Virus record (IMG/VR): IMGVR_UViG_3300008113_000007
Location: 64,001 to 117,858 of that record
Length of the DNA stretch: 53,858 nt
Direction: 5' to 3' (one strand)
DNA from: a virus
Shown here piece after piece: positions 18,828 to 51,409 of this stretch; within the stretch, counting starts at the first letter, position 1, and each line of letters starts with the position of its first letter. The notes under the pieces are model-generated. The model worked only from the letters and a program-made list of their open reading frames with translations, was not told the origin of the DNA and did not search any database. The position numbers and the translations under genes are program-made.

Positions 18828-19229
18828 ATGCCAATAGTAGTTAAGAACTCGCAACTGAACGACGAGACGATTACAGCACTGAACTCGCTCATCGATATGG
18901 ACATTAACGCATCAACGGCGTTCAGATTGACGAGGATCATCAAGGAGATATCCTCGATAGTGGAGGACAAAGTCAAGATGGAGAAAAGAATTCTCGACAA
19001 ATGGACTATGAAGGACGAAGAGGGTAACGTTATACCGGCGAAAGACGAACAAGGTAACGTGATTCCCGGTGCCGTCAACATAAAAGATCCTGAGCAATTC
19101 ACAAAGGAGATGTCCGAGCTGATGGATCTTGAGAACGTAATCGACTTCGAGAAAATATCATTTGACAGCCTAGAGCTGAAGACGGCGAAGGTGAAAGACC
19201 TAATCAAAATCGAGTTCCTGTTCGATTAG
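18828..19229 (+). CDS. Unknown acidic protein (133 aa)
   Basis: I do not recognise this protein. Residues 1-60 look helical (NDETITALNSLIDMDINAST). A middle segment contains two similar short strings, EEGNVIPAKDE and EQGNVIPGAVN, suggesting a small internal duplication. The C-terminal part is Leu/Glu-rich (MSELMDLENVIDFEKISFD). It starts 24 bases after the methyltransferase and its TAG stop overlaps the GTG start of the next gene (TAGTG), so the three genes probably form one late operon from the 18072 promoter. The helical character would suit a tail or baseplate accessory protein, but this is a guess. Confidence 0.75.
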   Translation: MPIVVKNSQLNDETITALNSLIDMDINASTAFRLTRIIKEISSIVEDKVKMEKRILDKWTMKDEEGNVIPAKDEQGNVIPGAVNIKDPEQFTKEMSELMDLENVIDFEKISFDSLELKTAKVKDLIKIEFLFD

Positions 19230-19531
19230 TGGAGAGCTTCGTGTACATAATATCTTGCCAGCGCGGGCAGGCGCTTCCCGAGATAAGATCCGTGTGGACC
19301 GACTACGACGACGCCATACTCGCCTACTGCGAGGACCTATCCGATTGGAACAACCAGGACTTCTACCTCTTACACAAGCTTCCGGTCGGCAGGTTCTGCG
19401 GGCCTGGCGAGTGGTGCAAGGAGAAGCTCGGTAAGAGCAGCAAGAACAGGCTGAAGTTCGATGACAAGGAACTGAAGAACCTAATCAAGTCAATCAAGCG
19501 TAACAGGCAGATAGACGAGATACTGGACTAG
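19229..19531 (+). CDS. Unknown small protein (100 aa), GTG start
   Basis: I do not recognise this protein. The GTG at 19229 overlaps the previous stop by one base (TAGTG), which indicates translational coupling; it gives MESFVYIISCQRGQALPEI. The protein contains an aromatic and cysteine-bearing middle (DWNNQDFYLLHKLPVGRFCG, then GEWCKEKLG) and a Lys-rich helical end (LKNLIKSIKRNRQIDEIL). There is no membrane segment. It is the last gene before a strong terminator. Confidence 0.7.
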   Translation: MESFVYIISCQRGQALPEIRSVWTDYDDAILAYCEDLSDWNNQDFYLLHKLPVGRFCGPGEWCKEKLGKSSKNRLKFDDKELKNLIKSIKRNRQIDEILD

Positions 19532-21214: not shown

Positions 21215-22770
21215 TGGCCACTTACAGCGTATACGACGGACAAAACTACCAGACGACTGGAAGCACACTAATTCTTCTGGATCCTGCAACACAATCCTAC
21301 ACTTTCACCGAGAACAAGGTATACACCGATTTACCGGAAAATACCAGCAAGCTCGTATATCCGAATAGTGTTAGGAACGCAGTTTTGTCGATATACGACA
21401 CAATCGCCTTCAAGGAGAACCTCGTAGGCGACAAATACTTCATCGGAATTGACAAAGGCAATCAGAATATAAAGAAGTCGATTTACATAGGTAAAAGACG
21501 TTACCTCAACTCGGAAATCGCAAATTCATCCATACTTGCAGAGAACGATGTAACAATACACAACACTAAATCCGATACCAGCAACAACCAGTTCAGAACC
21601 GTGATGACTTTCCTAAACGGCGATTCGAGTCGCGCAAGCACCGTAACCAACAGTATAGAGGCGCAGGTTGTAAAATACTCCAACAACACGAGGCGAATAG
21701 ACCTTTCGTTTATCAACTCGAGTGGCGACATAAACGTTTTATCCAAAGGGCCTGGATCTCAGGATTTAGGTTCGTTGGTATCCTTAAACGGAATAGCCTA
21801 CTCGAGGGTACAGGATTCAGATCCGAACTTCGGTGGCTCCGCATCAGACGGCAGAACTTTGGCATACAAAAACGGCGTGATGATGTGGGCCGACCTGACT
21901 CCGACCGATCCTGGTTGGTACGGCGCGACTTCCACGATTGTACCTATTTTAGGTTCGAGTACTTTCATAAACGATTATCCGCTCGAGTTCTCTGACAACA
22001 ATATGATACCGATAGAGATTGGCGACTTGAAGTACGGTGAGACTTTCAGTAAAAGGCCGATTGCTTTTATGTTGGATCGAATAATATACGAATATCTCAG
22101 CCCATCCTGTACACTCAGGCTGGTCGACAGCAAGATGTCGTACGCTGAGATAGGTACGAGCCCGAACATACAACTTGCGTACACTATCACGAAAAAGAGC
22201 AATGATACTAAGCCAACGGCACTCACAAACATGCTACCAAACCAAGTTGGTGCCATAACAGGTCTATCTAGGACGATAGAGGGTACGGCCAAAGGCATCG
22301 TAATCACTCCGCTCGAGAAGGGAACCTCAACATTCAAAATTACCGCAAGCGACGGCATAAATTCAAACTCGGCAAGCGCTACGGTCACAGGAATATACCC
22401 TTACTTTTTCGGATTCACATCATCGACTACGATCAATTCGAACCTACTGAAGACTATGACGAAGGTCGTCGATGGAAAGGCAGAGCAGAAGATTGACATC
22501 TTCAGGAATGGAATCGAGTCGACGGACGTGTTCTACTTCATGTACGATTACGACTACGGCCCGTTGAATTCCGTTTATGACCCGGGAGATCCGGCAGTAC
22601 CTACCGGCTACGAAATACTTTACGCGAGGTTCCAGTTCAAAGAGGCGGTATTGTCGTCACCTAGCGGTCTATGGGCACAAAAGAAATTTAGGGTTTACTA
22701 CTCGACACAGATTGCGTCAACTTACATCAGTTCTACTACTGTAGGATCTTTCTTCCGGTTTATCTTCTAG
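21214..22770 (+). CDS. Tail fibre / baseplate-attached structural protein, copy 2 (518 aa)
   Basis: This is a paralogue of the preceding gene. The shared landmarks, in order, are MATYSVYDGQNYQ, DLPENTSKLVYPNSVRNAVL, YFIGIDKGNQNIKKSIYIGK (copy 1 has YIGIDSGNPADRDIKQKILL), then VTIHNTKSD and VSLNGIAYSRVQD. Similarity fades after about residue 230. The distal half has an Ig/cadherin-like look (AYTITKKSNDTKPTALTN; STFKITASDGINSNSASATV), possibly a binding domain. Translation is coupled to copy 1 through TAATG. The stop is the TAG of CTAG 22767-22770, a palindrome that also provides the stop of the convergent gene. Confidence 0.72.
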   Translation: MATYSVYDGQNYQTTGSTLILLDPATQSYTFTENKVYTDLPENTSKLVYPNSVRNAVLSIYDTIAFKENLVGDKYFIGIDKGNQNIKKSIYIGKRRYLNSEIANSSILAENDVTIHNTKSDTSNNQFRTVMTFLNGDSSRASTVTNSIEAQVVKYSNNTRRIDLSFINSSGDINVLSKGPGSQDLGSLVSLNGIAYSRVQDSDPNFGGSASDGRTLAYKNGVMMWADLTPTDPGWYGATSTIVPILGSSTFINDYPLEFSDNNMIPIEIGDLKYGETFSKRPIAFMLDRIIYEYLSPSCTLRLVDSKMSYAEIGTSPNIQLAYTITKKSNDTKPTALTNMLPNQVGAITGLSRTIEGTAKGIVITPLEKGTSTFKITASDGINSNSASATVTGIYPYFFGFTSSTTINSNLLKTMTKVVDGKAEQKIDIFRNGIESTDVFYFMYDYDYGPLNSVYDPGDPAVPTGYEILYARFQFKEAVLSSPSGLWAQKKFRVYYSTQIASTYISSTTVGSFFRFIF

Positions 22771-33740: not shown

Positions 33741-33760
33741 ATTTAAGTGTGTCGCGGAAA

Positions 33761-33770
33761 TAATATATAG
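33761..33770 (+). promoter_or_regulatory. Late-type promoter
   Basis: TAATATATAG; the predicted leader is about 17 bases to the ATG at 33792. It is the only promoter-like block before the collagen-like fibre frame. Confidence 0.65.
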
Positions 33771-33791
33771 TGTATAATATAAGTTATAACT

Positions 33792-34250
33792 ATGGCAGGA
33801 ATAAGCTCGAATAACCAGACAAACATAGCGTTCAAAAACCTACTCGGTAAATCGGTAACATACACCAGTGCGGCACTGAGTCAGGAGCCGTTTGGTATAT
33901 TTTTCAACGTAAGTTCTTCTAATGTTTGGGCCTCGGCGATAACGATAGAGGATCCATACGCAACGATCGGCAACGGCGCGGCAGTTTACGTAGAGGCGGA
34001 TTTGGTCTACATCTCATCTTCTAACGGCTCTGCCTTCAAGGCGGTCTGGCCGGCAACCCCGCCGGCGGGAACCGACCCTAAAACTTCTTCGCCATTTTCT
34101 TACGGTTCGGGCTCACTGACTGGTATAGCCGCCGGTAACGTTGTTAATAACGTAATATCCGATGCTTACGGTTCGAGTTATGCGGCCACGGTCTTCTCAA
34201 GTGGTAACGAGATTTACTCTGGTGATACCAGAAACTGGCTTTTCCAGTAA
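33792..34250 (+). CDS. N-terminal module of the collagen-like fibre, ended by an in-frame TAA (152 aa)
   Basis: This frame encodes a 152-residue Ser/Ala/Gly-rich beta protein (MAGISSNNQTNIAFKNLLGK ... SGDTRNWLFQ) and stops at TAA 34248-34250. The same reading frame continues without another stop into the collagen-like gene. The eight codons after the TAA (NSGIYWQE) read like a natural continuation, and no late-type promoter separates the two. It is either a true short gene, the attachment module of the giant fibre joined to it by stop-codon readthrough, or the result of one C-to-T change (CAA to TAA). See the finding for tests. Confidence 0.7.
   Translation: MAGISSNNQTNIAFKNLLGKSVTYTSAALSQEPFGIFFNVSSSNVWASAITIEDPYATIGNGAAVYVEADLVYISSSNGSAFKAVWPATPPAGTDPKTSSPFSYGSGSLTGIAAGNVVNNVISDAYGSSYAATVFSSGNEIYSGDTRNWLFQ
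34248..34250 (+). other. In-frame TAA inside a 3029-codon reading frame
   Basis: The stop sits between CAG and AAC (...WLFQ, stop, NSGIYW...). Positions 33792, 34248 and 34275 are all in the same frame. The nearest downstream start is a GTG at 34275 with no clear ribosome site. Confidence 0.8.
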
Positions 34251-34274
34251 AACTCGGGTATCTACTGGCAAGAG

Positions 34275-37200
34275 GTGCCGAACGCCTCACCTACACCAGA
34301 CCAGATAAAGTTCTTCGTCTACATAGGCGAGACGCTAGCTAACGCCACTTTCGGAGGCGCCGGTATGACCGGTGCCACAGGTCCAACGGGTCCTGCAGGC
34401 GACAGGTACCAGACGTTCGACAACACCACCAGCGCGACCATCGCGAGCTCGGGCAACTTCACCTTCACAGTAGAGGCAGGCTTGGCGTACACCGTCAACC
34501 AGGTCGTGCTCATATCGGCAGGTTCCGGGACCTACATGAACGCCACGGTAACTGCTTACAACAAGACCACAGGCCAGCTCGACGTAACCGCCACAGGATC
34601 AGCAGGATCCGGCACACACAACAGCTGGGTCATAAACCTCGCAGGTGCGGTCGGCGCCGTTGGTGACGCGGGTTCAAGCGGTACTTCAGGTTCGGCAGGT
34701 TCTTCCGGTGTTTCGGGTGACGCAGGTTCTTCGGGTACATCGGGCTCTTCAGGTTCTTCTGGAACAACCGGGTCTTCGGGCAGTTCTGGTACGTCAGGCT
34801 CTTCGGGTTCAAGCGGTACGTCAGGCTCATCAGGTAGTTCTGGTTCTTCCGGTACTACCGGATCATCTGGGTCTTCGGGCACATCTGGTTCATCTGGTAC
34901 ATCAGGCAGTTCCGGTTCGACAGGAACATCAGGTTCATCAGGTACTTCCGGGTCATCAGGTAGCTCAGGTTCTTCGGGTACGAGAGGTTCATCCGGGTCG
35001 TCTGGTTCATCCGGTACGCGTGGTTCATCCGGATCATCGGGTTCTACGGGAACTTCCGGGTCGTCTGGTTCTACGGGAACTTCCGGGTCGTCTGGTTCAA
35101 CTGGTTCGTCAGGTACATCAGGAACTTTCGGTTCTTCTGGTTCTTCTGGTTCTTCAGGTACGTCAGGCTCTTCAGGCTCTTCAGGTACATCCGGCTCTTC
35201 TGGTTCATCGGGTAGCTCCGGTACCACAGGTTCATCAGGTTCCAGTGGTACTAGTGGTAGCTCTGGCTCGTCAGGAACATCCGGGTCGTCTGGTTCGACC
35301 GGTACTTCCGGCTCTTCGGGCTCCTCGGGATCTTCCGGTACAACTGGCTCGTCCGGCTCATCCGGAACTTCGGGTTCGTCCGGCTCAAGTGGCACAAGCG
35401 GTAGCTCTGGTTCTACAGGAACTTCTGGATCTAGCGGTTCGACCGGTACATCTGGATCTTCTGGTTCTGCCGGCACCACAGGCTCGTCCGGCTCTACAGG
35501 AACCTCTGGTTCTTCTGGATCAACCGGCACGTCCGGATCTTCTGGTAGTTCAGGTACAACCGGTTCTTCCGGCTCTAGCGGTTCTTCCGGCACATCTGGA
35601 TCTTCCGGTAGCACCGGAACATCAGGCTCTTCGGGCTCATCTGGTACCACTGGCTCTTCAGGCTCTTCAGGCTCTTCAGGAACTTCTGGTAGTTCGGGCT
35701 CTTCAGGCACTTCTGGTAGTTCGGGAAGTTCTGGAACTTCAGGCAGCTCAGGTTCGACCGGTACTTCAGGCAGCTCAGGTTCGACAGGTACATCAGGTAG
35801 CTCAGGTTCTTCAGGCTCCTCTGGTACTAGAGGTTCGTCTGGTTCGTCTGGTTCGAGTGGCACATCGGGCTCTAGTGGCTCGACCGGTACTTCTGGCTCT
35901 TCAGGCTCGACCGGTACATCCGGATCTTCTGGTTCGAGCGGTACATCGGGCTCTAGTGGTTCGACTGGAACTTCTGGCTCTAGTGGCTCTACCGGTACTT
36001 CTGGCTCTAGTGGCTCTACCGGAACATCAGGCTCTTCCGGTTCAACAGGCACCTCTGGTTCTTCTGGTAGTACAGGAACTTCTGGTTCTTCTGGTAGTAC
36101 AGGAACATCAGGTAGCTCAGGTTCATCCGGCTCATCTGGCACTAGCGGTTCGTCTGGTTCATCCGGTACCAGAGGTTCTTCCGGTAGCTCTGGTTCATCA
36201 GGAACTTCTGGTAGCACAGGAACCTCTGGTTCGTCTGGTAGCACAGGAACTTCAGGTTCTTCCGGTAGCTCAGGTACGACTGGTTCTTCCGGTAGCTCTG
36301 GCTCCTCAGGAACTTCTGGCTCTTCCGGTTCGACAGGAACTTCTGGCTCTTCCGGTTCGACAGGGACCTCTGGCTCTTCCGGTAGCTCAGGTACGACTGG
36401 TTCTTCCGGTAGCTCAGGTACACGTGGATCTTCCGGTAGCTCAGGTTCAACAGGAACCTCTGGCTCTTCCGGTTCGACAGGAACCTCTGGCTCTTCAGGC
36501 TCTTCCGGTACGACAGGGTCATCAGGTAGCTCAGGTTCGACAGGAACCTCTGGCTCTTCCGGTTCTACTGGTACTTCTGGCTCGTCTGGATCTTCTGGTA
36601 CTACAGGTTCATCTGGTAGCTCAGGCACAACGGGTTCTTCGGGATCCTCTGGAACTTCCGGCTCTTCCGGTTCGACAGGAACCTCTGGTTCAACGGGAAC
36701 CTCTGGCTCTTCCGGTACTACAGGCTCCTCCGGTAGCTCAGGCACAACGGGCTCTTCCGGATCGTCTGGTTCGACCGGTTCATCTGGTTCTTCCGGTACG
36801 AGAGGTTCATCAGGTTCTTCCGGATCCTCGGGAACGACGGGTTCATCAGGTTCATCTGGTACGAGAGGTTCGTCTGGCTCTTCTGGTTCGTCCGGTACTA
36901 GTGGCACGGGCTTCAACTCGGTATACTTCCCTGCGAGCAACAGGGTACTCACTGCGTACGGAGGTCTGAACGACAGTGCACTGGCACAGGAAAACCTACT
37001 GTTCAACGGATCTCTTCTGACTGTTATCGGCGGCGCTACCATATCTGGAACTACGTCTACTAACAAACTTTTCATAAACAGTGTAACCTCTGGAACCACA
37101 GAACAGGACATATTAGTCATCTCTAACACCGGCGAGGTGCTAAAGAGAACAATCACCGAGCTTGGTGGCTCTTCGGGCACTTCTGGTTCATCTGGATCTT

Positions 37201-40200
37201 CCGGTACGAGAGGCTCGTCTGGAAGTTCAGGTTCTTCGGGTACTTCAGGAACGGGAACCGCAGGCTCATCAGGAACTGCAGGTTCTTCGGGTACTTCAGG
37301 AACAGGGACCGCAGGATCCTCAGGAACTGCAGGTTCTTCGGGTACTTCAGGAACAGGTACAGCCGGTTCTTCAGGAACTTCGGGTTCATCGGGCTCCTCA
37401 GGTAACACCGGATCTTCTGGCTCATCAGGATCCTCGGGAACTTCGGGATCTTCTGGCTCTTCGGGTACGAGAGGCTCGTCTGGTTCATCTGGTTCCTCTG
37501 GTTCTTCTGGCACCAGTGGTTCTGCAGGTTCATCCGGTACGTCTGGATCATCCGGTTCTTCGGGCACCTCAGGTTCGTCCGGCTCTACCGGTACTTCTGG
37601 TTCCTCCGGTTCATCTGGTACTACGGGTTCTTCAGGCTCCTCGGGTACTACAGGCTCATCCGGTTCTTCCGGTACTTCTGGTTCATCAGGCTCGACGGGT
37701 ACTTCAGGCTCATCAGGCTCGACCGGTACTTCTGGCTCGTCTGGATCTTCTGGGACCACAGGTTCGTCAGGAAGTTCTGGCTCATCAGGTTCCTCAGGCT
37801 CATCCGGTTCTTCCGGTACTTCTGGATCCTCTGGTTCTTCCGGTACTGCCGGCTCATCGGGCTCCTCCGGGACCAGAGGTTCATCCGGTAGCTCTGGTTC
37901 TGCAGGATCCTCTGGATCTGCAGGGTCTTCCGGTACCACTGGTTCTTCAGGCTCTTCCGGAACCACAGGCTCGTCCGGTTCTTCTGGTACTTCAGGGTCG
38001 TCTGGATCCGCCGGTTCATCCGGTACTAACGGACAGAGTGACAGGTACGCGACAACGTCCAGTTCATCGAACAGCATATCTAACACACCGGGTACTTCTC
38101 AGACGTACACTGTCGAATCCGGCCTGGCATACACTCCTAACCAGACTGTTGTCATATCTAGGAATGGAACTTCCGACTATATGAACGCGACAGTTACGTC
38201 CTACTCCGGTAGCACTCTGGTCGTTTCGGTGAACAGTGGCGCCACGGTCGGTGGACCTTATACTAACTGGACCATAAACCTTGCGGGTGCCGCGGGTGGT
38301 AACGGTTCAGCAGGTTCTTCTGGTTCGTCTGGTTCTTCGGGTACCAGAGGTTCATCCGGTTCATCCGGTTCATCTGGTTCATCAGGAACTACAGGCTCAT
38401 CAGGCTCATCAGGAACTACAGGCTCATCTGGTTCATCAGGGACTGCCGGTTCTTCCGGCTCTTCAGGAACATCAGGTTCATCAGGTAGCACTGGAACTTC
38501 AGGTTCATCTGGGTCTTCAGGTACTACAGGATCCTCCGGTTCGTCCGGCACTAGGGGATCTTCCGGCTCGTCCGGAACCTCCGGCTCGTCCGGTAGCACT
38601 GGATCTTCCGGCTCGTCTGGTTCATCCGGTACTTCAGGTTCATCTGGTTCGTCCGGCACTAGAGGATCATCGGGATCATCGGGTTCAACAGGCTCTTCGG
38701 GCTCTACAGGCTCTTCGGGCTCAACCGGCACCTCGGGTTCATCTGGTTCATCGGGAACTACAGGATCATCCGGTTCATCCGGTACTAGGGGTTCTTCGGG
38801 TTCTTCAGGAACTTCTGGATCCGCCGGCTCTTCCGGTACATCAGGAACAACAGGTCCGGAAGGACCTCCAGGACCTCCAGGAACTGGTTTCAACACGGTA
38901 ACTAACTTCGGCGACAACAGGATACTGACCTCTGACGGAACTGCTAACGGTGCATACGCAGAGAACAACTTCACGTTCGACGGCACGCTACTTACGCTCA
39001 CTGGTAACTCGGTAACTTACGGTGACATCAACCAGGGCGACCAATCAGGCACCGGCCGCATAATCAACATAGCAGATGGCAACTTAGAGAATTGGTATCC
39101 TATCGGATACGTGAGCAGCTCTCCGGGTAGGGGTGCCGTCAGGGTAATAGTGTCGTACACGGGTGGCCTTTGGGTACCGGTGACTTACGTCATCGACGCA
39201 TTCAAAGACTACGGAAGTGGAACCGGGGCAGCAACCACACTCTCTCTTCAGAAGTTTGGTACTATTAACTACATAAAAGAGGCAAGGATCGTACTAGACA
39301 GCTCAAACGCTAGGTTCGCACTCGAGGGTCTATTCATCGCAAGAGCGCAGGGACACACAGCGAGTGTGAACGTGCAGAGGCTTCTCGGAACACACAATGA
39401 CTGGACCTTCAACTCGGGCACTTTGGTGCCGTCAACCCTGACTGTGGATCCAGCGAGTGACAACTGGCTGGCCAGGTCGACGTTCCCTGTGAGTAACGGC
39501 GGTAGCACGCTCGAGCGTCTGCACATAAACGACAACCGCGCAGGAAGGTACTGGTCACTCACAGACAACAGTTCAACTACGCAGTACCAGCTTCAGGTGA
39601 ACGACGACACTGACACGATAATGCAGTTCGACGGAACCCTGAACAAAGTCTCCATAGGCACGACGACCGTTCCGACCGCGGCAGATGGAACCCTCAGGAT
39701 AGCCGGCGCTACGATGAGCAACCTGCTCGACGTCTACCAGACGCCGGAGCCCGCCTTCAGGTACCGCGTGAGGGCACTCGGTACGCAGCTAGGCCAAAAC
39801 CTTGAAAATGACAGGCTCGGCATATCGGCAAATGCAATGCCAGTTTACTCCACTGGACTTTTCTACAACCAAAAGGAGGGCGCCGCCATAAAATTCTGGA
39901 GAGGGGCAACCGACTGGGACAGCTCCATAACATTCAATACGTTGGGTGATAGCACATCAACACTCTTAGGCCTATCTGTTGCGACGGCGAGCGAGAGAGT
40001 AATCATCAAGCCATACGGTGAGGTGATGATCAACGCAGGGCAGTTCTTCACCGCTTCGCAGATCTGGAACTCCGGCCTTGGAGCGTCGGCGTCGCTGAAC
40101 GTTTTCCCAATCACCACCGGCGTAACAAGGCCTTACGCGCTCGCTCTTTACGTGAACAACACCCAGTGGCCTATTCTGACAAAGAACACTTCCGTAGCCA

Positions 40201-42878
40201 ACCAGCCCGACCAGTTCTTCGTTAGGCACTCATCAACAGACGTGCATATGGGCAACGCCAGAACAGGCGGTCTGCTCATAATGACGCAGAGCAACGTCGG
40301 CGTGAGCACTAACCTCATAGTAGGAACTCACACGACGCCTGGTGCTAGGCTAGACGTCAGGGCGAACGCTCCTTACGGTGCGTTCAGGATGCAGGATACC
40401 TCAGAGGGTGCAGGCAAGATATTGATGTCAGACGCACAGGGTGACGCGACCTGGGTTGCCGCATCGTCTATCATCGCCAACGGCGTGACCGGTTCCGGAA
40501 CCGCAAACTTCTTCCCTTACTGGACCAGTGCAAGCAACCTCTCTGCGACGAGCTCGATACTGCGCAATGGTGACAATATTGGTGTATCGGGTTCAGTCAC
40601 CGCGTACAATTTCCTCTACAACCGGCCTTACGCGTCGACCGCGATGAGGTACACGAAATCCGTGCCAGGGTTGACATCCAGTGCGTTCATTAACCTCTTC
40701 CGCGTGGACGGCGACACACTAGCCTCTGGGGTAAGGGCCTCATTCACTGGAACCGTAGGAAGCTCCGTGACCAACGTGGTTGTCGACATACTCGTGAGCC
40801 ACTTCCAGGATATCTACGTAGAGTCTATATCCGGAAACTACACCGAGCTGACCCTGAGGATAATCTCCGACAACGACCAAAACTTCGTCGTTCAGGGCAA
40901 GATGTTTGCCCTCAACTCGCCTACATACAACGACCTAAGGGTAGAGGTTTTCCCTTACAGCAGCGAAGTGATCACATTCGACGGCATAACAGTCCCTTCT
41001 GGAACATCAACCAGTACCACTTATGAGCACGCCTGTGGCATCAACGGTAAGGTCATATCCGGAACAGGCAGCGGCTCCGACGACCTTGCCTCTCTCTCGT
41101 TGAGCGGCAGGCTCGCCGTCGGACAAGTCGCGGCATCCGTTTACCCTCAGGCCAAGTTACACGTGAACAACACGTCCAACTCACTTTCGGTGCTCATCGA
41201 GGACTCGCAATACGGAGACTCAACGCCGTTCATGATCTCGGACGACGGTAACGTACACATAGGTACGAACACCGTGAACACAAGTACCAAACTTAACGTG
41301 GTCGCGACCTCGGCGTTCGGCGGCTTCAGGCTTCAGGACACAAGCCAAGGTCCTAACAAAGTCCTCGTATCGGACGCGGACGGCGACGCTTCGTGGCTAA
41401 CCTACTCAAACGTGTTCTCTGCAGTCAGTGGTGTAACAGGCTCCGGTCAGCCGCTCAGGTTCACTTACTGGAACACCGCGAGCAACCTTGCCACGTCTAG
41501 CGACCTCTTCTACGACCCTACCGAGAGGAAAATCGGTATGGGCCAGACTCCTGTCGTGAACACAAGGCTGCAGTTGGGCTGGACAATGTCCGACGTCAAC
41601 AACACAGAGGCATACGGTGCCTTCCTAAAGTCGAACGTAGTGGTCGCGGCATCGCTGATGTCCGGCATCAAGCAGGGTATAAAGGTCGAGACAGAGACCA
41701 CTGGAACGACAGGTACCGCAAACGAGATACACGGTGCGCTCATAGTCAACCGTAATCTGAACAGCACCAAGACAAACAACATGTACGGTGTCACGTCGAG
41801 GGCGGAGATAGGACTTAACGCGAAGGCTGACACAATCTACGCTTTCTCCGCACGAAACTACCTTTCAGACACGCAAACTTCCGCTAAGGGCACCGCGAGG
41901 CGACAGTACGGCCTCCACGTGCAGGAGCTCACAGGCGCGACAGGCGGCAACTGGGCGATATTCTCTCAAGGTCTGAACACGCAGTCTTTACTGCAAGGTA
42001 GACTCGGTCTCGGATACGAAGAACCGCTGGCCAAACTTCACATTGCCGGCGACAACTCGACGTTCAACAGATACGGCGCGATACTCATACATGATCTCAC
42101 AAGCACATCTCCGACGTTCAGCTCCATCATATTCGCGGCAAGCGATTTCAGCGAGAGACACTACATATACACAAGTAACAACTCGAATGATAAAGAGGAC
42201 TATATGAAGATAGGCTCGAGGTTCGGTAACATCCAGTTCACGACTGGCAACATGAGACTGCAGCAGCCAAGCTCCGTCGCAGGCGCTCTGTTCTCAGGAC
42301 CAACGACCAGGATGATCATAGAGAACGGTGGTAACGTAGGTATAGGCCTCACCGGCCCTACTTCGAAACTACACGTCAGGAGCTCGGCAGCGAACTCGAC
42401 GGTGATAGAGGCGGACGGCGTCTCAGGAGAGCTTTTCGGCGTGACCGACACGCTCAACGGAGTTCTGTTCACCGTGAACGACGTCTCCGGCCTACCGGTA
42501 CTTAGGGCGTCCTCGGACAACACCGTAACGCTCGGTGACTTCCAGGCCCCTGTGCTGATGACGACCGTCAAGACGACTAAGGGTGCAAACCTTACGAACT
42601 CTTTCGTTTACTCGCTCAGCGCGACGCAGTACAACACGGCTTTCTTCGAGTACAACGTACTAAGCGGAACCAACTCAAGGGTCGGTACGATTACGGCCGT
42701 CTGGAACTCGATTTCACTCGAGTTCAACGAGACGAGTACGATAGACATCGGCAACACGCTCGGAACCGGCGCGATAACGTTCAACGTGGCGCTTTCAGGT
42801 GCCAACGTGCTGCTCAGGTCGACCACGGCCGCCGGCGGCGGAACATGGACGATAAAGGTTTTCGTCAGAGCATTTTAG
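34275..42878 (+). CDS. Giant collagen-like tail fibre (2867 aa)
   Basis: This is a huge virion fibre. Residues 1-130 hold a beta domain (DRYQTFDNTTSATIASSGNF ... NSWVINLAGAVG). Three Gly-X-Y tracts follow at about 132-877, 963-1252 and 1342-1537, almost wholly GSS, GTS, GSA, GTT and GTR triplets. They are separated by one domain at about 878-962 and by a second copy of the N-terminal beta domain at about 1253-1341 (DRYATTSSSSNSISN ... NWTINLAGAAG). A classical GPEGPPGPPGTG closes the third tract. Residues 1538-2867 are fibre domains, including a repeated module (AFRMQDTSEGAGKILMSDAQ / GFRLQDTSQGPNKVLVSDAD). The chosen start is the GTG at 34275; the frame is also open upstream back to the TAA at 34248. 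Confidence 0.82.
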   Translation: MPNASPTPDQIKFFVYIGETLANATFGGAGMTGATGPTGPAGDRYQTFDNTTSATIASSGNFTFTVEAGLAYTVNQVVLISAGSGTYMNATVTAYNKTTGQLDVTATGSAGSGTHNSWVINLAGAVGAVGDAGSSGTSGSAGSSGVSGDAGSSGTSGSSGSSGTTGSSGSSGTSGSSGSSGTSGSSGSSGSSGTTGSSGSSGTSGSSGTSGSSGSTGTSGSSGTSGSSGSSGSSGTRGSSGSSGSSGTRGSSGSSGSTGTSGSSGSTGTSGSSGSTGSSGTSGTFGSSGSSGSSGTSGSSGSSGTSGSSGSSGSSGTTGSSGSSGTSGSSGSSGTSGSSGSTGTSGSSGSSGSSGTTGSSGSSGTSGSSGSSGTSGSSGSTGTSGSSGSTGTSGSSGSAGTTGSSGSTGTSGSSGSTGTSGSSGSSGTTGSSGSSGSSGTSGSSGSTGTSGSSGSSGTTGSSGSSGSSGTSGSSGSSGTSGSSGSSGTSGSSGSTGTSGSSGSTGTSGSSGSSGSSGTRGSSGSSGSSGTSGSSGSTGTSGSSGSTGTSGSSGSSGTSGSSGSTGTSGSSGSTGTSGSSGSTGTSGSSGSTGTSGSSGSTGTSGSSGSTGTSGSSGSSGSSGTSGSSGSSGTRGSSGSSGSSGTSGSTGTSGSSGSTGTSGSSGSSGTTGSSGSSGSSGTSGSSGSTGTSGSSGSTGTSGSSGSSGTTGSSGSSGTRGSSGSSGSTGTSGSSGSTGTSGSSGSSGTTGSSGSSGSTGTSGSSGSTGTSGSSGSSGTTGSSGSSGTTGSSGSSGTSGSSGSTGTSGSTGTSGSSGTTGSSGSSGTTGSSGSSGSTGSSGSSGTRGSSGSSGSSGTTGSSGSSGTRGSSGSSGSSGTSGTGFNSVYFPASNRVLTAYGGLNDSALAQENLLFNGSLLTVIGGATISGTTSTNKLFINSVTSGTTEQDILVISNTGEVLKRTITELGGSSGTSGSSGSSGTRGSSGSSGSSGTSGTGTAGSSGTAGSSGTSGTGTAGSSGTAGSSGTSGTGTAGSSGTSGSSGSSGNTGSSGSSGSSGTSGSSGSSGTRGSSGSSGSSGSSGTSGSAGSSGTSGSSGSSGTSGSSGSTGTSGSSGSSGTTGSSGSSGTTGSSGSSGTSGSSGSTGTSGSSGSTGTSGSSGSSGTTGSSGSSGSSGSSGSSGSSGTSGSSGSSGTAGSSGSSGTRGSSGSSGSAGSSGSAGSSGTTGSSGSSGTTGSSGSSGTSGSSGSAGSSGTNGQSDRYATTSSSSNSISNTPGTSQTYTVESGLAYTPNQTVVISRNGTSDYMNATVTSYSGSTLVVSVNSGATVGGPYTNWTINLAGAAGGNGSAGSSGSSGSSGTRGSSGSSGSSGSSGTTGSSGSSGTTGSSGSSGTAGSSGSSGTSGSSGSTGTSGSSGSSGTTGSSGSSGTRGSSGSSGTSGSSGSTGSSGSSGSSGTSGSSGSSGTRGSSGSSGSTGSSGSTGSSGSTGTSGSSGSSGTTGSSGSSGTRGSSGSSGTSGSAGSSGTSGTTGPEGPPGPPGTGFNTVTNFGDNRILTSDGTANGAYAENNFTFDGTLLTLTGNSVTYGDINQGDQSGTGRIINIADGNLENWYPIGYVSSSPGRGAVRVIVSYTGGLWVPVTYVIDAFKDYGSGTGAATTLSLQKFGTINYIKEARIVLDSSNARFALEGLFIARAQGHTASVNVQRLLGTHNDWTFNSGTLVPSTLTVDPASDNWLARSTFPVSNGGSTLERLHINDNRAGRYWSLTDNSSTTQYQLQVNDDTDTIMQFDGTLNKVSIGTTTVPTAADGTLRIAGATMSNLLDVYQTPEPAFRYRVRALGTQLGQNLENDRLGISANAMPVYSTGLFYNQKEGAAIKFWRGATDWDSSITFNTLGDSTSTLLGLSVATASERVIIKPYGEVMINAGQFFTASQIWNSGLGASASLNVFPITTGVTRPYALALYVNNTQWPILTKNTSVANQPDQFFVRHSSTDVHMGNARTGGLLIMTQSNVGVSTNLIVGTHTTPGARLDVRANAPYGAFRMQDTSEGAGKILMSDAQGDATWVAASSIIANGVTGSGTANFFPYWTSASNLSATSSILRNGDNIGVSGSVTAYNFLYNRPYASTAMRYTKSVPGLTSSAFINLFRVDGDTLASGVRASFTGTVGSSVTNVVVDILVSHFQDIYVESISGNYTELTLRIISDNDQNFVVQGKMFALNSPTYNDLRVEVFPYSSEVITFDGITVPSGTSTSTTYEHACGINGKVISGTGSGSDDLASLSLSGRLAVGQVAASVYPQAKLHVNNTSNSLSVLIEDSQYGDSTPFMISDDGNVHIGTNTVNTSTKLNVVATSAFGGFRLQDTSQGPNKVLVSDADGDASWLTYSNVFSAVSGVTGSGQPLRFTYWNTASNLATSSDLFYDPTERKIGMGQTPVVNTRLQLGWTMSDVNNTEAYGAFLKSNVVVAASLMSGIKQGIKVETETTGTTGTANEIHGALIVNRNLNSTKTNNMYGVTSRAEIGLNAKADTIYAFSARNYLSDTQTSAKGTARRQYGLHVQELTGATGGNWAIFSQGLNTQSLLQGRLGLGYEEPLAKLHIAGDNSTFNRYGAILIHDLTSTSPTFSSIIFAASDFSERHYIYTSNNSNDKEDYMKIGSRFGNIQFTTGNMRLQQPSSVAGALFSGPTTRMIIENGGNVGIGLTGPTSKLHVRSSAANSTVIEADGVSGELFGVTDTLNGVLFTVNDVSGLPVLRASSDNTVTLGDFQAPVLMTTVKTTKGANLTNSFVYSLSATQYNTAFFEYNVLSGTNSRVGTITAVWNSISLEFNETSTIDIGNTLGTGAITFNVALSGANVLLRSTTAAGGGTWTIKVFVRAF
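34675..36905 (+). repeat. Gly-X-Y coding repeat tract 1 (about 2.2 kb)
   Basis: About 740 residues of GSSGSSGT-type triplets with period 9 at the DNA level. All six Ser codons are used in varied order, so DNA identity between repeats is lower than protein identity. Confidence 0.9.
37165..38030 (+). repeat. Gly-X-Y coding repeat tract 2
   Basis: About 290 residues. It includes a near-perfect DNA repeat, encoding GTGTAGSSGTAGSSGTS units, at about 37247-37370. Confidence 0.88.
38300..38885 (+). repeat. Gly-X-Y coding repeat tract 3
   Basis: About 195 residues of the same triplets, ending with the proline-containing GPEGPPGPPG, which looks like a classical collagen-like cap. Confidence 0.88.
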
Positions 42879-42976: not shown

Positions 42977-45973
42977 ATGTCTAACGAATTCTTCGTAAGA
43001 AGAGGCCTCGCGATCGCGACCTCGTCGGTCAGCCTAGCGACAACAGAGAACAAGATTCTCGTACTCGGCGACGACCACGTGGTCAGGTACCGCACCGATA
43101 TCTCGGGCGGCGGGGGCGGCTCGGCGTGCGCAGCTGCGCCTACATTCTCGGTGCAGATAAGCAGCGGCACTGGCCTCACAGGGTTCGGTATAATAGACTA
43201 CGGCCGCGGGTCTGTGCTGATAAACAGGCCGGGACTTCCGATACTCGCTTACAACTCATTCAACACCTTCATAGGCGCGAGCGCCGGTGTCGCCACTCAG
43301 GTCTCGGCCGCGTGCAACACATTCGTCGGCTACAGATCGGGGCAATCGAACCAGACAGGCAGCTGCAACACTTACATCGGTATGGAGACCGGCCTAAACA
43401 ACCAGACAGGTACTGGTAACACCTTCGTCGGGCATGAGGCAGGAAAGACCGGCCAGACCAACACAGGTTGCAATACTTTCGTGGGCTTCCAGGCTGGCCA
43501 AGGCGACGTTTGTAACTTCAACGTCTCGGTTGGATATCAGGCGACCAGCAACTCTATCGGCATCAAAAACGGCGTTTTCATAGGAGCGTGCGCCGGCTTC
43601 CGAGCGTGCGGCGAGAACAACGTCCTCGTCGGATCCTGCGCTGGTCTGTGCCAACAGAGCGCGCCGTCGAACACGGTCGTCGGATCCTGTGCCGGTTTAT
43701 GTAATCTTACTGGCGAGCAGAACGCTATGCTGGGCTTCCAGGCCGGCTTCTGCAACACAAGCAGCTGCAACACGTTCGTAGGATCGTGCGCCGGTAGAAA
43801 CAACAACAACGCCGCAGGAAACGTCGCGGTCGGATGGTGCTCCGCGTTCTGCAACACTTCGGGCACTGGCAACGTATCGGTCGGTTCCGGCGCGGGCTTA
43901 TGTAACACAAATTCCAGGAACGTTTTCGTCGGCCATTTTGCAGGCTGCAAGGTCAACAAGAACGACAACGTCGTCGTCGGCTACGCAGCCGGATTCGGGC
44001 TAGACGGAACGCAGAACACCATAATAGGCGCGAGCGCCGGCGTCGCGTTAGACGTCTCTGACAGGAACACACTGGTCGGCTTCCTTGCGGGCTGCACGAT
44101 GGTCGGCGACTTCGACAACGTGGCGGTAGGCTTCGGCGCCAACAGGCGTGGCACTACGTCGAGGAACACCGTCGTCGGATCCTGCGCGGGCTTCCACGCC
44201 AGTACCCCTGTCGGCTTCGACTCCGAGGCAGTTTACCTCGGTATGGCCTCGGGCTTCTGCGACCTGACCGGAAGGAACAACACTCACGTAGGAACTCGCG
44301 CGGGCTTCGGTGCTGGCTCCGCCACATTCGTAACCACATTGGGTAGCTGCGCGGGCTACGGCAACACGGCATCGTTCAACACCTTCGTAGGCGCCCTGGC
44401 AGGCGCCGGATCTCACGCCTACACTACAGGCTCGATAACGCTCGCAAACCAGAACACCGGTACATCGAGCGTCTTTGTAGGCTTCAGCGCAGGCTTCAGC
44501 AACAAGAGCGGCAATCTCAACACTTTCGTTGGAACAAACGCAGGGTTCTGTAACACAAGTGGCGAGCGTAACACGTTCATTGGATCCTTCGCCGGACTTT
44601 CGAACAGTACTACCTGTGACAACGTTCTGATAGGCGCATGTGCCGGCCGTTCCGTGGCGTCTGGCGGACTCAACGTCATGATCGGTTCTCGTGCGGGCGA
44701 AACTAACACAGGTGACTCGAACACGTTCGTTGGTAGATGCTCCGGTGCACTATCGGAGGTCGCGGCAGGAAACACCTACCTCGGTTATCACGCGGGTATG
44801 AGGTCTTGCGGCACCTCTAACACGCTGATCGGCTACGGAATCGGCGCGGACTGCAACAGCACATCGGCGAACAACGTGGCCGTCGGCCACGTCGCGGGCA
44901 GGTTCAACACCATAGGAGGCGGAAACGCGCTGGTCGGAGCATACTCCGGGCAATATAACAGAGAGGGGACCGGCAACGCTTACCTCGGCTTCCAATCCGG
45001 TAACTTCGGTGTCAACGTAAGTGAAAACGTCGCCATCGGATATTACGCAGGACTCGGAAACACGGCGTCCTTCAACACGATAGTCGGCGCCTACGCAGGT
45101 AGGGGCGACACGACTTTGACCGTAAACTCGGCTAACCTCATGACGGGCACCTCTAGTGTGATGATGGGCTACATGTCTGGCTATAGTAATACCACGGGTT
45201 CTCGAAACACATTCATTGGTGGATACAGTGGTTTTTGCAATCAAAGTGGATGCGACGACACTTTCATCGGTAACCTTTCGGGATGGTGGTCGGCCTCATC
45301 GTGCTGCAACACCTACCTGGGCGCGTGCGCCGGCTTCTGTAGCATAAACCACGCGAATGCGTTCGTCGGTATCTGCTCCGGCCTCAAGAACGAGGCTCTC
45401 GGCGGAGTATTCGTTGGGGCGTTCTCCGGTGTTGTCAATCAGGGTAACTGCAACGTTTTCATAGGCTACTACTCCGGCTGCAAGAACAACACAGGAACAT
45501 GCAACGTTTTCATAGGCGCCAACACAGGATTCTCAAACACGCAGGGTAGCGACAACACTTTCATCGGCTTCAATTCTGGCTACTGTAACGGACTTAATGG
45601 CGTATCCTGCTGGAACACCTTTTTGGGATCGCACGCCGGACACCTCAACAACACCGGTACCGCAAGTACTTACATCGGAAACCGCACAGGATGCTGCGTG
45701 ACCAGCGGCGCTGGCAACACATACGTCGGAAACGAATCTGGAGGGTGCAACAGCAGCGGAAACTACAACGTGGCCGTGGGCTTCAGGTCGAACTACACGA
45801 ACAACTTCTCGTGTACAATATCACTTGGTATCTGCGCACAGCCTACTGCGAACCAACAGCTCGTGATAGCGTCTAACCAGTTTCCACTCGGAACAGCGTC
45901 GGCCGGGACATTCTCGTTCTTCCTGAACGCGCGGATAAACGGAATAAACGTTAAAATACCACTATACCTGTAA
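42977..45973 (+). CDS. Cysteine-rich beta-roll repeat fibre, copy 1 (998 aa)
   Basis: This is a virion fibre. The N-terminal adaptor MSNEFFVRRGLAIATSSVSL is shared with the next gene. From about residue 90 to 960 it consists of repeats of roughly 14-20 residues with core NTFVGxxAGxxN (NTFVGYRSGQSNQTGSCNTY; NVAVGWCSAFCNTSGTGNVS), similar to the head repeats of trimeric autotransporters and other left-handed beta-rolls. Unusually, many repeats carry Cys at fixed places (CAGFCNTSSCNTF), which would stack into ladders along the fibre. The end NGINVKIPLYL is a tip domain conserved in the paralogue. Whether the Cys form disulphides outside the cell or bind metal is unknown. Confidence 0.82.
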   Translation: MSNEFFVRRGLAIATSSVSLATTENKILVLGDDHVVRYRTDISGGGGGSACAAAPTFSVQISSGTGLTGFGIIDYGRGSVLINRPGLPILAYNSFNTFIGASAGVATQVSAACNTFVGYRSGQSNQTGSCNTYIGMETGLNNQTGTGNTFVGHEAGKTGQTNTGCNTFVGFQAGQGDVCNFNVSVGYQATSNSIGIKNGVFIGACAGFRACGENNVLVGSCAGLCQQSAPSNTVVGSCAGLCNLTGEQNAMLGFQAGFCNTSSCNTFVGSCAGRNNNNAAGNVAVGWCSAFCNTSGTGNVSVGSGAGLCNTNSRNVFVGHFAGCKVNKNDNVVVGYAAGFGLDGTQNTIIGASAGVALDVSDRNTLVGFLAGCTMVGDFDNVAVGFGANRRGTTSRNTVVGSCAGFHASTPVGFDSEAVYLGMASGFCDLTGRNNTHVGTRAGFGAGSATFVTTLGSCAGYGNTASFNTFVGALAGAGSHAYTTGSITLANQNTGTSSVFVGFSAGFSNKSGNLNTFVGTNAGFCNTSGERNTFIGSFAGLSNSTTCDNVLIGACAGRSVASGGLNVMIGSRAGETNTGDSNTFVGRCSGALSEVAAGNTYLGYHAGMRSCGTSNTLIGYGIGADCNSTSANNVAVGHVAGRFNTIGGGNALVGAYSGQYNREGTGNAYLGFQSGNFGVNVSENVAIGYYAGLGNTASFNTIVGAYAGRGDTTLTVNSANLMTGTSSVMMGYMSGYSNTTGSRNTFIGGYSGFCNQSGCDDTFIGNLSGWWSASSCCNTYLGACAGFCSINHANAFVGICSGLKNEALGGVFVGAFSGVVNQGNCNVFIGYYSGCKNNTGTCNVFIGANTGFSNTQGSDNTFIGFNSGYCNGLNGVSCWNTFLGSHAGHLNNTGTASTYIGNRTGCCVTSGAGNTYVGNESGGCNSSGNYNVAVGFRSNYTNNFSCTISLGICAQPTANQQLVIASNQFPLGTASAGTFSFFLNARINGINVKIPLYL

Positions 45974-45988
45974 AATTAGAACCTGAAC

Positions 45989-48900
45989 ATGTCAAACGAA
46001 TTTTTTGTAAGAAGAGGCCTCGCAATCGCGGTATCGTCCGTGAATCTAGCAACAACCGAGAACAAGGTGCTCGTACTCGGCGACGACAACATAGTAAGGT
46101 ACAGGACTAACATATCCGGTGGATCCGCGCAGGCAGCCGCTCCTACGTTCTCTGTTCAGATAAGCGACGGCACCGGCCTGACGGGCTACGGCCTCATAGA
46201 CTTCGGCCGAGGCAACACGTCGCTCAACAGGCCCGGTTTTCTTATAACCACAAGCAACTCATTGAACACTCTGATAGGCGCGAGCGCCGGCGTCGCGGTC
46301 GGAACGAACGCAAACGTCTACGTCGGGTACAGGTCGGGCGTTGCGAACGCCAACGGGTGCTTCAACACCTTCCTGGGAACCGAGACGGGCATCGTCGCGC
46401 AGGCCGCCGGACAAGGCTATAACACGTTCGTCGGATACCAGTCGGGCAACGCCACTGTCTGCAGCTGCAACACGTTCGTAGGTGCGTGCACAGGGGTGTC
46501 CGCACTTTGTGCAGGAAACACGCTCGTCGGATACGAGGCTGGCAAGAGTGCGACCAACGCACTTAAAGGGACGTTCGTCGGTTTTCAGGCAGGCTGCGTG
46601 AACTCGGGCGCTGACAACGCCTACGTCGGATACCAGGCAGGAATGTGCGTGACGAGCGGCGCGCAGAACACGATTTTAGGAAGCTGCGCTGGGGAGAAGC
46701 TTACTACGCAATCGAGGAACGTACTGGTAGGATTCCAGGCAGGCTTGTGTGTTACCACAACCGAGAACACGTTCGTCGGAACATGCGCAGGCCGCAACAC
46801 AAGCACGGGCTGTCTTAACACTTTCTATGGCTTCTGCGCCGGGTTCTGCATGACAACTGAGTGTGCTAACGTCTTCGTAGGACATCAGGCGGGATCGTGT
46901 GCGACCGGCGGGTGGAACGTCGGTGTCGGTACATGTGCCGGTTTCTGCAGTACCGGTGCCTTCAACGTGTACCTCGGCCACGGCGCCGGTTACAAGAACA
47001 CCGGCTATAGATCTGTCTTCATAGGGACGGACGCAGGTTGCTCCAACACCTCTAGGAACGACAACGTCGCAATTGGTTATTATGCGGCCTGTAGCCTAGA
47101 CGGCTGTCAGAACACGGTCTTGGGAAGCTGCGCCGCTCCGCAACTCGGCACCAGTGAGAGGAACGTCTACATCGGCTTCATGGCAGGCAGAGATGGCTCG
47201 GTCGAGTACGACAACACCTTCATCGGAAGCTGTGCGGGTGTCTGCGCCAACACCCAGAACTCAACTGCCATAGGTTCCTGTGCGGCATTTCACAGCTGCG
47301 GTCGAGACACAACCAACCAGGACGCCGAGTTCGTCTACGTCGGAATGGGATCGGGCTTCTGTGAAAAGAGGGGACGGGGCAACACCTACATCGGAACAAG
47401 GTCAGGATTCGCAGGAGGTAGCCCGCTATTCGTGACCGCTTTGGGAAGTTGCGCCGGATACGGAAACACGGCATCCTTCAACACATTCGTGGGAGGCATG
47501 GCCGGGGCGGGAATTCACAATTACGTAGGCGTTCCTGGTAACGACGTCAATAACGCGTTGCTCAACAGTGGAACGAGTAGTGTTTTCATGGGCTATATGT
47601 CCGGGCTGAGAAACCTTACTGGAAACAGGAACATCTTCATAGGAAACTACGCAGGATCTTCCAACATCTCTGGTAGTTGCAACGTCTACTTAGGCGACGG
47701 GGCAGGTTCACGCAACACGGCATCCGTCAACACGTTCGTCGGCGCGTTCGCCGGCGAAACGGGTACAGGAGATTCAAACACCTACGTAGGATTCTGTGCT
47801 GGTTTCTGCACCGGCGCCGGCTTCGGAAACGTAGGCATAGGTATCAGTGCACTGACCGGCGACTCGGTCGACGGGGTGAAAGGTAACGGCTGCTATAATA
47901 CAGCCGTAGGCGTGTCTGCAGGATACAGCCTCGGTCGAAACTCCAAAGATAACGTCGTTATCGGTTCTTGGGCGCTTACTAGCGCACTCAACGCGACGAA
48001 CAGCGTGGTCATCGGTAACTGTGCCGGCTGGAATACAGGCGCGAGCACGAACTTAGGCTACTCAAGCAACGTTTTGATTGGAGCCAGGGCCGTGGCCAAT
48101 CAAAAATGGTCTTGTCTAAACACCGTCATCGGAACGGATGCGGTCGGTCACGGTGGTAGTGGTAACTGTTCCTCGTTTCCACTTAGTTGCAACACGATCG
48201 TCGGCCACGAGGCCGCCTACTGTGGATGGTCTCTATTAGAAAGCACCTACATAGGCTTCAGGGCCGGCTACTCGGCCACTTTCTCCTCACAGAATACGAT
48301 ACTCGGTTTCTGCGCAGGTTACGGCAACACATCGACTACCGGCTTCAACGTATTCGTTGGCGCGCGCGCCGGCGCAACTAACACAGGAGACTCGAACACC
48401 TTCGTGGGTAGATGCTCCGGTGCGATCTCCGGGCCAGCAGGAGGAAACACCTACCTCGGTTATCACGCGGGTATGAGGTCTTGCGGTAACGCCAACACGC
48501 TGATCGGTTACGGCGTAGGCGCGGACTGCAACAGCACATCGACCAACAACGTAGCCATCGGCCACGTCGCGGGCAGGTACAACACTACAGGCGGCGGCAA
48601 CGCGCTCGTCGGAGCCTACTCCGGTCAATACAACAGAGAAGGGACCGGCAACGTGTACCTCGGCTTCCAATCCGGTAACCTCGGAGAGAACGGGCAATCC
48701 GGCACTCACCGTCAATTCGACGAACCTCATGACCGGAACATCCAGTGTCATCGTCGGCTTCGGATCTGGATTCAGTCTAACCACGGGTGCACACAACACG
48801 TTTGTCGGTGCGTACTCAGGCTATTCGACGACGTCTGGTTGCAGGAACACGTTCGTCGGATACTGCACCGGCGCTTCCACTGCGTTCTGTGGTTCGATAG

Positions 48901-49055
48901 TGCTCGGATACGGCGCGCAGGCCACCGGTAACTGCCAGCTCGTACTCGGATCCGCCGCACAGGCACTAGGTACAGCGTCAGACGGGACCTTCAACCAGTA
49001 CCTCTGCGTCGTTGTCAACGGAACAAACTTCAGAATACCTCTCTACTCGGCATAA
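45989..49055 (+). CDS. Cysteine-rich beta-roll repeat fibre, copy 2, with frameshift (1021 aa if corrected)
   Basis: This is a paralogue of the previous gene: same adaptor (MSNEFFVRRGLAIAVSSVNL), same Cys-rich NTFVG repeats. Read straight, the frame ends at 48931 after a tail (HRQFDEPHDRNIQCHRRLRI) unlike anything in the repeat family. In the +1 frame from about 48693 the expected sequence resumes (GNPALTVNSTNLMTGTSSVI) and runs to TAA at 49053-49055, with tip NGTNFRIPLYSA matching copy 1. The shift is at AAC GGG CAA (48689-48697) and coincides with the junction of a deletion of about 28 residues relative to copy 1. It may be a real mutation, programmed +1 slippage or an assembly error in repeats. 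Confidence 0.8.
48689..48697 (+). other. Frameshift site in beta-roll fibre copy 2
   Basis: AAC-GGG-CAA: dropping one G restores NGNPALTVNSTNL in register with the paralogue's TTLTVNSANL. It lies at the edge of a deletion relative to copy 1. Confidence 0.75.
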
Positions 49056-50095: not shown

Positions 50096-51409
50096 TTAGT
50101 ACCTGTACTCGTCGCTCTTGAACGGGCCATCAACAGGAACCCCTATGTAGTCCGACTGCTCAGGTGTCAGGATGTCAAGTTCTACGCCAATCTTAGCGAG
50201 GTGAAGCATAGCGACCTTCTCGTCGAGCTTCTTAGGAAGAACGTACACTTTGTTCTCGTAGTTATGCGAGTTCTGCCAAAGCTCGATTTGCGCGAGCGTC
50301 TGGTTCGCGAAAGAGTTCGACATCACGAACGAAGGGTGACCTGTGGCACATCCGAGGTTCACAAGCCTTCCTTCCGCCAATACGATAATGTCCTTACCCT
50401 CGACGTTGTAAACGTCGACCTGTGGCTTTATCTCGGTCTTTCCGGAGCCGTAGTAAGTGTTCAACCAATCCATATCAATCTCGTTGTCGAAGTGGCCGAT
50501 GTTACAAACTATCGTCTTATCCTTCATTCCGAAGAAATGCCTAGACATGATGATGTTCTTGTTACCTGTTGCAGTGACTACAATGTCCGCCTTAGAGATG
50601 ACGCTGTCCAGCCTCTTCACCTCATAACCGTCCATCGCCGCCTGTAATGCGCAGATTGGATCTATTTCAGTAACGATAACTCTCGCACCAGCACCTCTCA
50701 AAGAAGCAGCAGAACCCTTACCCACGTCGCCGTAGCCACAAACGATGGCAACCTTTCCTGCCATCATAACGTCAGTGGCCCTTCTTATAGAGTCGACCAA
50801 AGACTCCTTACATCCGTACTTGTTGTCGAACTTAGACTTAGTAACTGAGTCGTTCACGTTGATCGCCGGAACCAACAAAGTGCCTTTCTTCATTCTCTCC
50901 TGAAGTCTGAGAACACCGGTTGTTGTCTCTTCGGAAAGTCCTTTGATACCTTCTACCAGGTTAGGGTACCTGTCGAAGACCATATTCGTAAGATCACCTC
51001 CGTCGTCGAGTATCATATTCAACGGCTCGCCGCCCTCGAACGCGTGCAGCGTCTGCTCGATACACCAGTCGAACTCCTGCTCGTTCATACCTTTCCAAGC
51101 GTAAACAGGAATTCCTGCCGCTGCAATAGCCGCAGCCGCGTGGTCCTGTGTAGAGAAGATGTTACAAGACGACCACGAAACCTCTGCACCTAGCTCGATC
51201 AACGTCTCGATAAGAACTGCGGTCTGGATGGTCATATGTAGACAACCTGCGATCCTAGCTCCTGCCAAAGGCTTTGAACCTCTGTACTCCTCACGGATCG
51301 ACATAAGGCCGGGCATCTCCGCCTCAGCAAGTCTGATTTCTTTCCTTCCCCATTCGGCGAGCGACATGTCTTTCACTCTGTAGGCAAGTCTTTCATTTGT
51401 TTCTACCAT
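50096..51409 (-). CDS. ahcY: S-adenosylhomocysteine hydrolase
   Basis: This enzyme splits S-adenosylhomocysteine into adenosine and homocysteine, relieving product inhibition of methyltransferases (437 residues, full length). Landmarks are [19 protein letters not shown] near the N-terminus, [17 protein letters not shown], the NAD-binding [39 protein letters not shown], and the C-terminal PFKSDEYRY containing the conserved Lys and Tyr. It is the last gene of the minus-strand operon. The gene is rare in phages; the DNA methyltransferase at 18.1 kb is an obvious source of substrate, and lowering of SAM-dependent defence signals is a further possibility. Confidence 0.95.

What the first reader, a model, noticed from the sequence alone, without database searches (positions are those of the whole stretch)
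33792..42878. Single in-frame TAA inside a 3029-codon fibre frame: readthrough or nonsense change
The 152-codon frame and the collagen-like fibre share one frame, interrupted only by TAA 34248-34250. The eight codons between the stop and the GTG at 34275 read as ordinary protein (NSGIYWQE), there is no promoter block between them, and the GTG has no clear ribosome site. A regulated TAA readthrough would put an attachment module on only a fraction of fibres; alternatively CAA mutated to TAA.
Basis: seen in the sequence. Interest (0 to 1): 0.75.

Follow-up and report, generated by a model that had tools for sequence, protein, structure and literature searches.

The report
Private nonsense codon in phage fibre
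A very long fibre gene of an uncultured large phage is cut by one stop codon at a place where every relative found has an ordinary amino-acid codon, so this is most likely a one-off nonsense change (or a consensus error) and not a regulated readthrough switch.

Summary
In detail: one TAA (34248-34250) is the only stop in an otherwise open 3,029-codon frame, and no credible start signal follows it. Homologues settle what it is. I found 24 loci (21 distinct sequences) encoding the same N-terminal module. All run through the site: 19 distinct sequences have Tyr (TAT/TAC), the two most distant have Pro, none has a stop. Fifteen of the 21 were reached with probes that end before the stop, so finding them did not depend on the site. 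The syntenic 344-kb relative G001 has one uninterrupted ORF of about 2,710 codons covering both window ORFs. The TAA replaces a conserved Tyr codon, not CAA. It falls between two predicted beta-strands of one small domain, so it cuts the module itself. TAA is the record's commonest stop (53 of 102 ORFs), no tRNA gene was found, the virus shows no Shine-Dalgarno use, and neither restart codon is conserved. Best reading: a private TAY-to-TAA change in one ancestral gene, either a real allele or a consensus error. Programmed readthrough is very unlikely. Raw reads at 34248 would decide real versus error. A neighbouring spike gene carries a second private break, a frame switch near 48.69 kb.

The parts
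33792..34247 (+). First 152 codons of the fibre's N-terminal module (about 187 residues in all)
   Evidence: tblastn hits in huge-phage genomes; alignments A1-A4; open frame
34248..34250 (+). In-frame TAA at the position of a conserved Tyr codon
   Evidence: Tyr in 19 of 21 distinct homologues, Pro in 2, stop in none
34251..34352 (+). Remainder of the N-terminal module (NSGIYWQEVPNASPTPDQIKFFVYIGETLANATF), out of reach of normal translation in this allele
   Evidence: 45% identical over the 135 residues after the stop to G001, which is continuous there; predicted strands 157-160 and 171-177
34353..42878 (+). Fibre body: Gly-X-Y-like (GSS/GTS) repeats interrupted by small domains, then a C-terminal region
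   Evidence: translation; C-terminal region 60% identical to G001
34275..34277 (+). GTG listed as start of the second ORF; not conserved (Lys in G001) and without a ribosome site: not a credible start
33752..33791 (+). AT-rich leader with a TAATATATA motif also seen before other genes of the record, upstream of the single ancestral gene

Best explanation
The two ORFs are one ancestral gene for a giant collagen-like fibre: an N-terminal module (about 187 residues) fused to a Gly-X-Y-like shaft and a C-terminal region. In this contig the codon for conserved Tyr153 (TAC or TAT) reads TAA, through a single third-position change private to this sequence. If the change is real, ribosomes stop inside the module: a 152-residue fragment lacking the last two predicted beta-strands is made, and the rest of the fibre is not made or is made only at trace level, so virions carrying this allele would lack the fibre. 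Shown: homology across the stop, the Tyr codon in relatives, the single ORF in the syntenic relative, TAA as the commonest stop. Inferred: the direction of change, the effect on the virion, and that the module anchors the fibre. The confidence given is for a private nonsense change in one ancestral gene, whatever its origin; within it a real allele (about 0.55) and a consensus or assembly error (about 0.37) are not separated.
For: Homologues found with queries that end before the stop all continue past the site; codons at the site are TAT in 16, TAC in 3 and CCA in 2 distinct sequences. The residues right after the stop are conserved (NSGIYWQE against QSGIFWQE in G001; 45% identity over 135 residues). 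G001 holds one continuous ORF, and this TAA is the only internal stop flagged when 46 G001 genes with matches were compared with the record. The AlphaFold2 model (pLDDT 78) places the stop between strands 149-152 and 157-160. TAC outnumbers TAT 62 to 6 in this frame, so C-to-A is the likelier single step.
Against: The remaining 2,875 codons are intact, so either the change is very recent or the downstream part is still used in some way. No second assembly of the same virus was found to show the sense codon, so the direction of change rests on relatives whose module is about 52% identical or less.
Confidence: 0.92

Rival explanations
1. The TAA is not in the virus at all: a consensus or assembly error (low coverage, oxidative C-to-A damage in the library, or mixed strains) in a metagenomic contig. 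This is one of the two origins left open inside the best explanation.
For: One single-base departure in an otherwise intact 3,029-codon frame. A second private break, a frame switch near 48687-48704, lies in a neighbouring repeat-rich spike gene where mis-assembly is plausible.
Against: No other internal stop was flagged among 46 matched genes, so the contig is not generally error-rich; the frame switch looks like an out-of-frame length change between repeats, not a base-call error.
Confidence: 0.37
2. Programmed readthrough of TAA, so that only a fraction of products carries the long fibre.
For: The frame continues with conserved sequence on both sides and no further stop.
Against: No homologue has a stop there; the stop is inside a domain; UAA is the least read-through stop codon (PMC5289835); TAA ends 53 of 102 ORFs of the record; no tRNA gene in the 117.9-kb record or in the first 160 kb of the relative.
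Confidence: 0.03
3. The gene is now functionally split: the fragment ends at TAA and the fibre restarts at GTG 34275 or ATG 34365.
For: ATG 34365 has GGAGG at 7-nt spacing.
Against: The virus shows no Shine-Dalgarno use (5 of 99 genes against 15 of 99 control); neither codon is conserved in G001; no promoter motif; both products would hold an incomplete module.
Confidence: 0.04
4. TAA is reassigned to a sense codon in this virus.
For: None beyond the in-frame TAA.
Against: TAA is the commonest terminator (53 of 102 ORFs), and it is the only internal stop among compared genes.
Confidence: 0.01

Closest known systems
Fibre-like protein of IMG/VR phage IMGVR_UViG_3300042308_001511 (G001, 344 kb; L010/L026)
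   Same: Syntenic position, same N-terminal module (52% identical), same GSS/GTS repeats, related C-terminal region, same neighbouring genes
   Different: One continuous ORF of about 2,710 codons with TAT at the site
Protein in LR756501 (735,411-base uncultured phage, L002); its length fits the 735-kb genome of Al-Shayeb et al. 2020 (PMC7162821), but that paper's text does not give the accession
   Same: Same module fused to a long TSG/SGT repeat
   Different: Continuous, TAC at the site; module about 42-47% identical
Other proteins with the module (LR756502, LR756500, LR756508 and IMG/VR contigs L011, L012, L027-L036, L061, L064, L068-L071)
   Same: Same module at the N-terminus
   Different: Most are joined to unrelated bodies without the collagen-like repeat (L035 has it); none has a stop in the module
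Leaky-stop readthrough proteins of RNA phages (Q-beta A1; own knowledge)
   Same: A stop codon followed by open frame
   Different: There the stop is conserved and follows a complete domain; here it is private and inside a domain

Membership tests
Programmed stop-codon readthrough | Stop conserved in homologues | tested here: not met
   No stop in 21 distinct homologues
Programmed stop-codon readthrough | Stop lies after a complete N-terminal domain | tested here: not met
   Stop lies between predicted strands 149-152 and 157-160 of one module
Programmed stop-codon readthrough | Leaky stop or suppressor tRNA | tested here: inconclusive
   UAA-A context (UAA is the least leaky stop, PMC5289835); no tRNA genes found; the record is a fragment and host tRNAs are unknown
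Stop-codon reassignment (TAA as sense) | TAA avoided as terminator and recurrent inside genes | tested here: not met
   53 of 102 ORFs end in TAA
Nonsense allele of an intact gene family | Intact relatives with a sense codon one step from the stop | tested here: met
   TAT/TAC in 19 distinct homologues
Nonsense allele of an intact gene family | Stop present in raw reads | not testable with these tools
   No reads held
Collagen-like phage fibre proteins | Long Gly-X-Y repeat | tested here: met
   Translation: G-S-S, G-T-S triplets over much of the frame (without collagen's proline)
Collagen-like phage fibre proteins | Homotrimer on the virion | not testable with these tools
   Needs protein

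The most novel reading that the evidence does not exclude
The TAA is a real, selected on/off polymorphism of a host-recognition fibre in a natural phage population: part of the population makes the giant fibre and part does not, alongside a frame-broken spike paralogue next door.
Probability: 0.06. Interest if true: 0.4.

Novelty: new member of a known kind. Interest (0 to 1): 0.13.

Why it matters
Mainly for annotation: the two ORFs should be treated as one interrupted fibre gene, and the 152-codon piece is not a gene of its own. The module is shared by fibres and other virion-like proteins of many large uncultured phages and was not matched above threshold in the curated libraries used here, so it is a useful marker for N-terminal parts of such proteins.

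Tried and rejected
TAA reassignment: rejected by stop usage. Suppressor tRNA: none in the record or in the first 160 kb of the relative. Restart at GTG 34275 or ATG 34365: not conserved, and no Shine-Dalgarno use. Independent copy of the same virus with another base at the site: none in viral contigs or genome contigs by exact pattern (the own record may be left out). Solved fold for the module: no significant PDB match by structure or profile; only predicted proteins of large phages such as Agrobacterium phage Atu_ph07 and Tenacibaculum phage PTm1 matched. Pfam gave no family above its cut-off for the module or the fibre's C-terminal part, PHROGs none for the module.

Full report
Observation. 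ATG 33792 opens a frame that meets one TAA at 34248-34250 and is then open to TAG at 42876-42878. The next start-type codon after the stop is GTG 34275, and the eight codons before it read NSGIYWQE. The window is the last 53,858 bases of a 117,858-base virus record, G000.

Homologues across the stop. A tblastn search with only the 152 residues before the stop found large uncultured phages (LR756500-503, LR756508). In LR756502, LR756501 and LR756500 the frame runs through the site: NWIYQYNSGVFFQQ, NWIYQYQSGIYFQQ and LWIYQYQPGVYFRQ against the window's NWLFQ*NSGIYWQE. Scans of viral contigs added more loci. A scan built only from residues before the stop, and so unbiased at the site, returned 14 loci, all with TAT or TAC there. 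In total 24 loci, 21 distinct sequences: 16 TAT, 3 TAC, 2 CCA (Pro, among the most distant), no stop. Fifteen of the 21 were reached with probes that end before the stop. The stop-free state is therefore general and the TAA is private to this contig. The step is TAY to TAA; because the frame uses TAC 62 times and TAT 6 times, C to A is the likelier change.

The closest relative. G001 (344,083 bases) is broadly collinear with the window, with many core proteins 80-93% identical. It carries one ORF of about 2,710 codons that matches the window before the stop, across the stop and at the C-terminus. Among 46 G001 genes with a match in the record, this is the only one whose alignment holds an internal stop. 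The 135 residues after the stop are 45% identical to G001 and continuous there.

Where the stop falls. With the site read as Tyr, AlphaFold2 (13-row alignment, pLDDT 78, pTM 0.67) predicts strands at 149-152, 157-160 and 171-177 and a helix at 182-188. The stop thus separates two neighbouring strands of the module. It does not sit at the joint between module and shaft, where a readthrough stop that makes two useful products would be expected. The same module heads proteins with very different bodies, which is why I read it as the N-terminal, probably virion-attached part; that role is inferred.

Readthrough, recoding, restart. TAA ends 53 of 102 predicted ORFs, so it is not a sense codon here. 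No tRNA gene was found in the record or in the first 160 kb of the relative. UAA is reported as the stop with least readthrough in bacteria (PMC5289835). SD-like 4-mers occur upstream of 5 of 99 genes against 15 of 99 in a control stretch, so the GGAGG before ATG 34365 is best seen as glycine coding. Neither GTG 34275 nor ATG 34365 is conserved in G001. A TAWTATATA motif lies within 30 nt upstream of 12 of 99 genes and in none of the controls; one also starts 31 nt before ATG 33792 and none lies between the ORFs.

Real or error. Reads are not available here. In favour of a real change: the contig is otherwise clean by comparison with G001. In favour of error or a mixed population: a second private break lies 14 kb away. 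The spike-like paralogue 45989-48931 matches its sister 42977-45973 and G001 in frame 2 up to about 48.69 kb, and then in frame 3 to the usual C-terminal ending. Compared with the sister it seems to lack roughly 30 codons at that place, with a net change of frame, as from deletion or assembly collapse between degenerate repeats. I put a real allele at 0.55 and an error at 0.37; these are judgements, not computed values.

Verdict. An ordinary private nonsense change in a giant collagen-like phage fibre gene, or a consensus error; not a readthrough switch.

Noticed in passing
window 48660-48735, inside 45989-48931 and overlapping ORF 48729-49055: Second private break: the spike-like paralogue switches from frame 2 to frame 3 near 48687-48704; its normal C-terminal ending (GTNFRIPLYSA) is in frame 3. 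Looks like an out-of-frame deletion or assembly collapse between repeats.
   Followed up: partly
upstream of 12 of 99 genes of the record, e.g. window 4400, 16456, 27439; also 31 nt before 33792: TAWTATATA motif within 30 nt upstream of start codons (none in the control stretch), a likely phage promoter; the genes show no Shine-Dalgarno use.
   Followed up: partly
window against G001 (L018-L025, L037-L046): The record has 49.5% GC and the relative 36.6%, although many proteins are 80-93% identical: strong compositional divergence between close phages.
   Followed up: no
window 50096-51409 (-): S-adenosylhomocysteine hydrolase gene (Pfam AdoHcyase, E 6e-135) in the phage, about 88% identical in G001.
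   Followed up: no
window 19595-21214 and 21214-22770: Tandem paralogous genes of unknown function (cross-matches about 28-29% identical), also tandem in G001.
   Followed up: no
window 19229-19531: Short gene 83% identical to a G001 gene that lies next to the DNA polymerase there (near G001 60.5 kb), away from its window neighbours: a gene move.
   Followed up: no
window 34556-38086 (-): 1,176-codon antisense ORF opposite the repeats; a by-product of the repeat's codon composition, not a likely gene.
   Followed up: no
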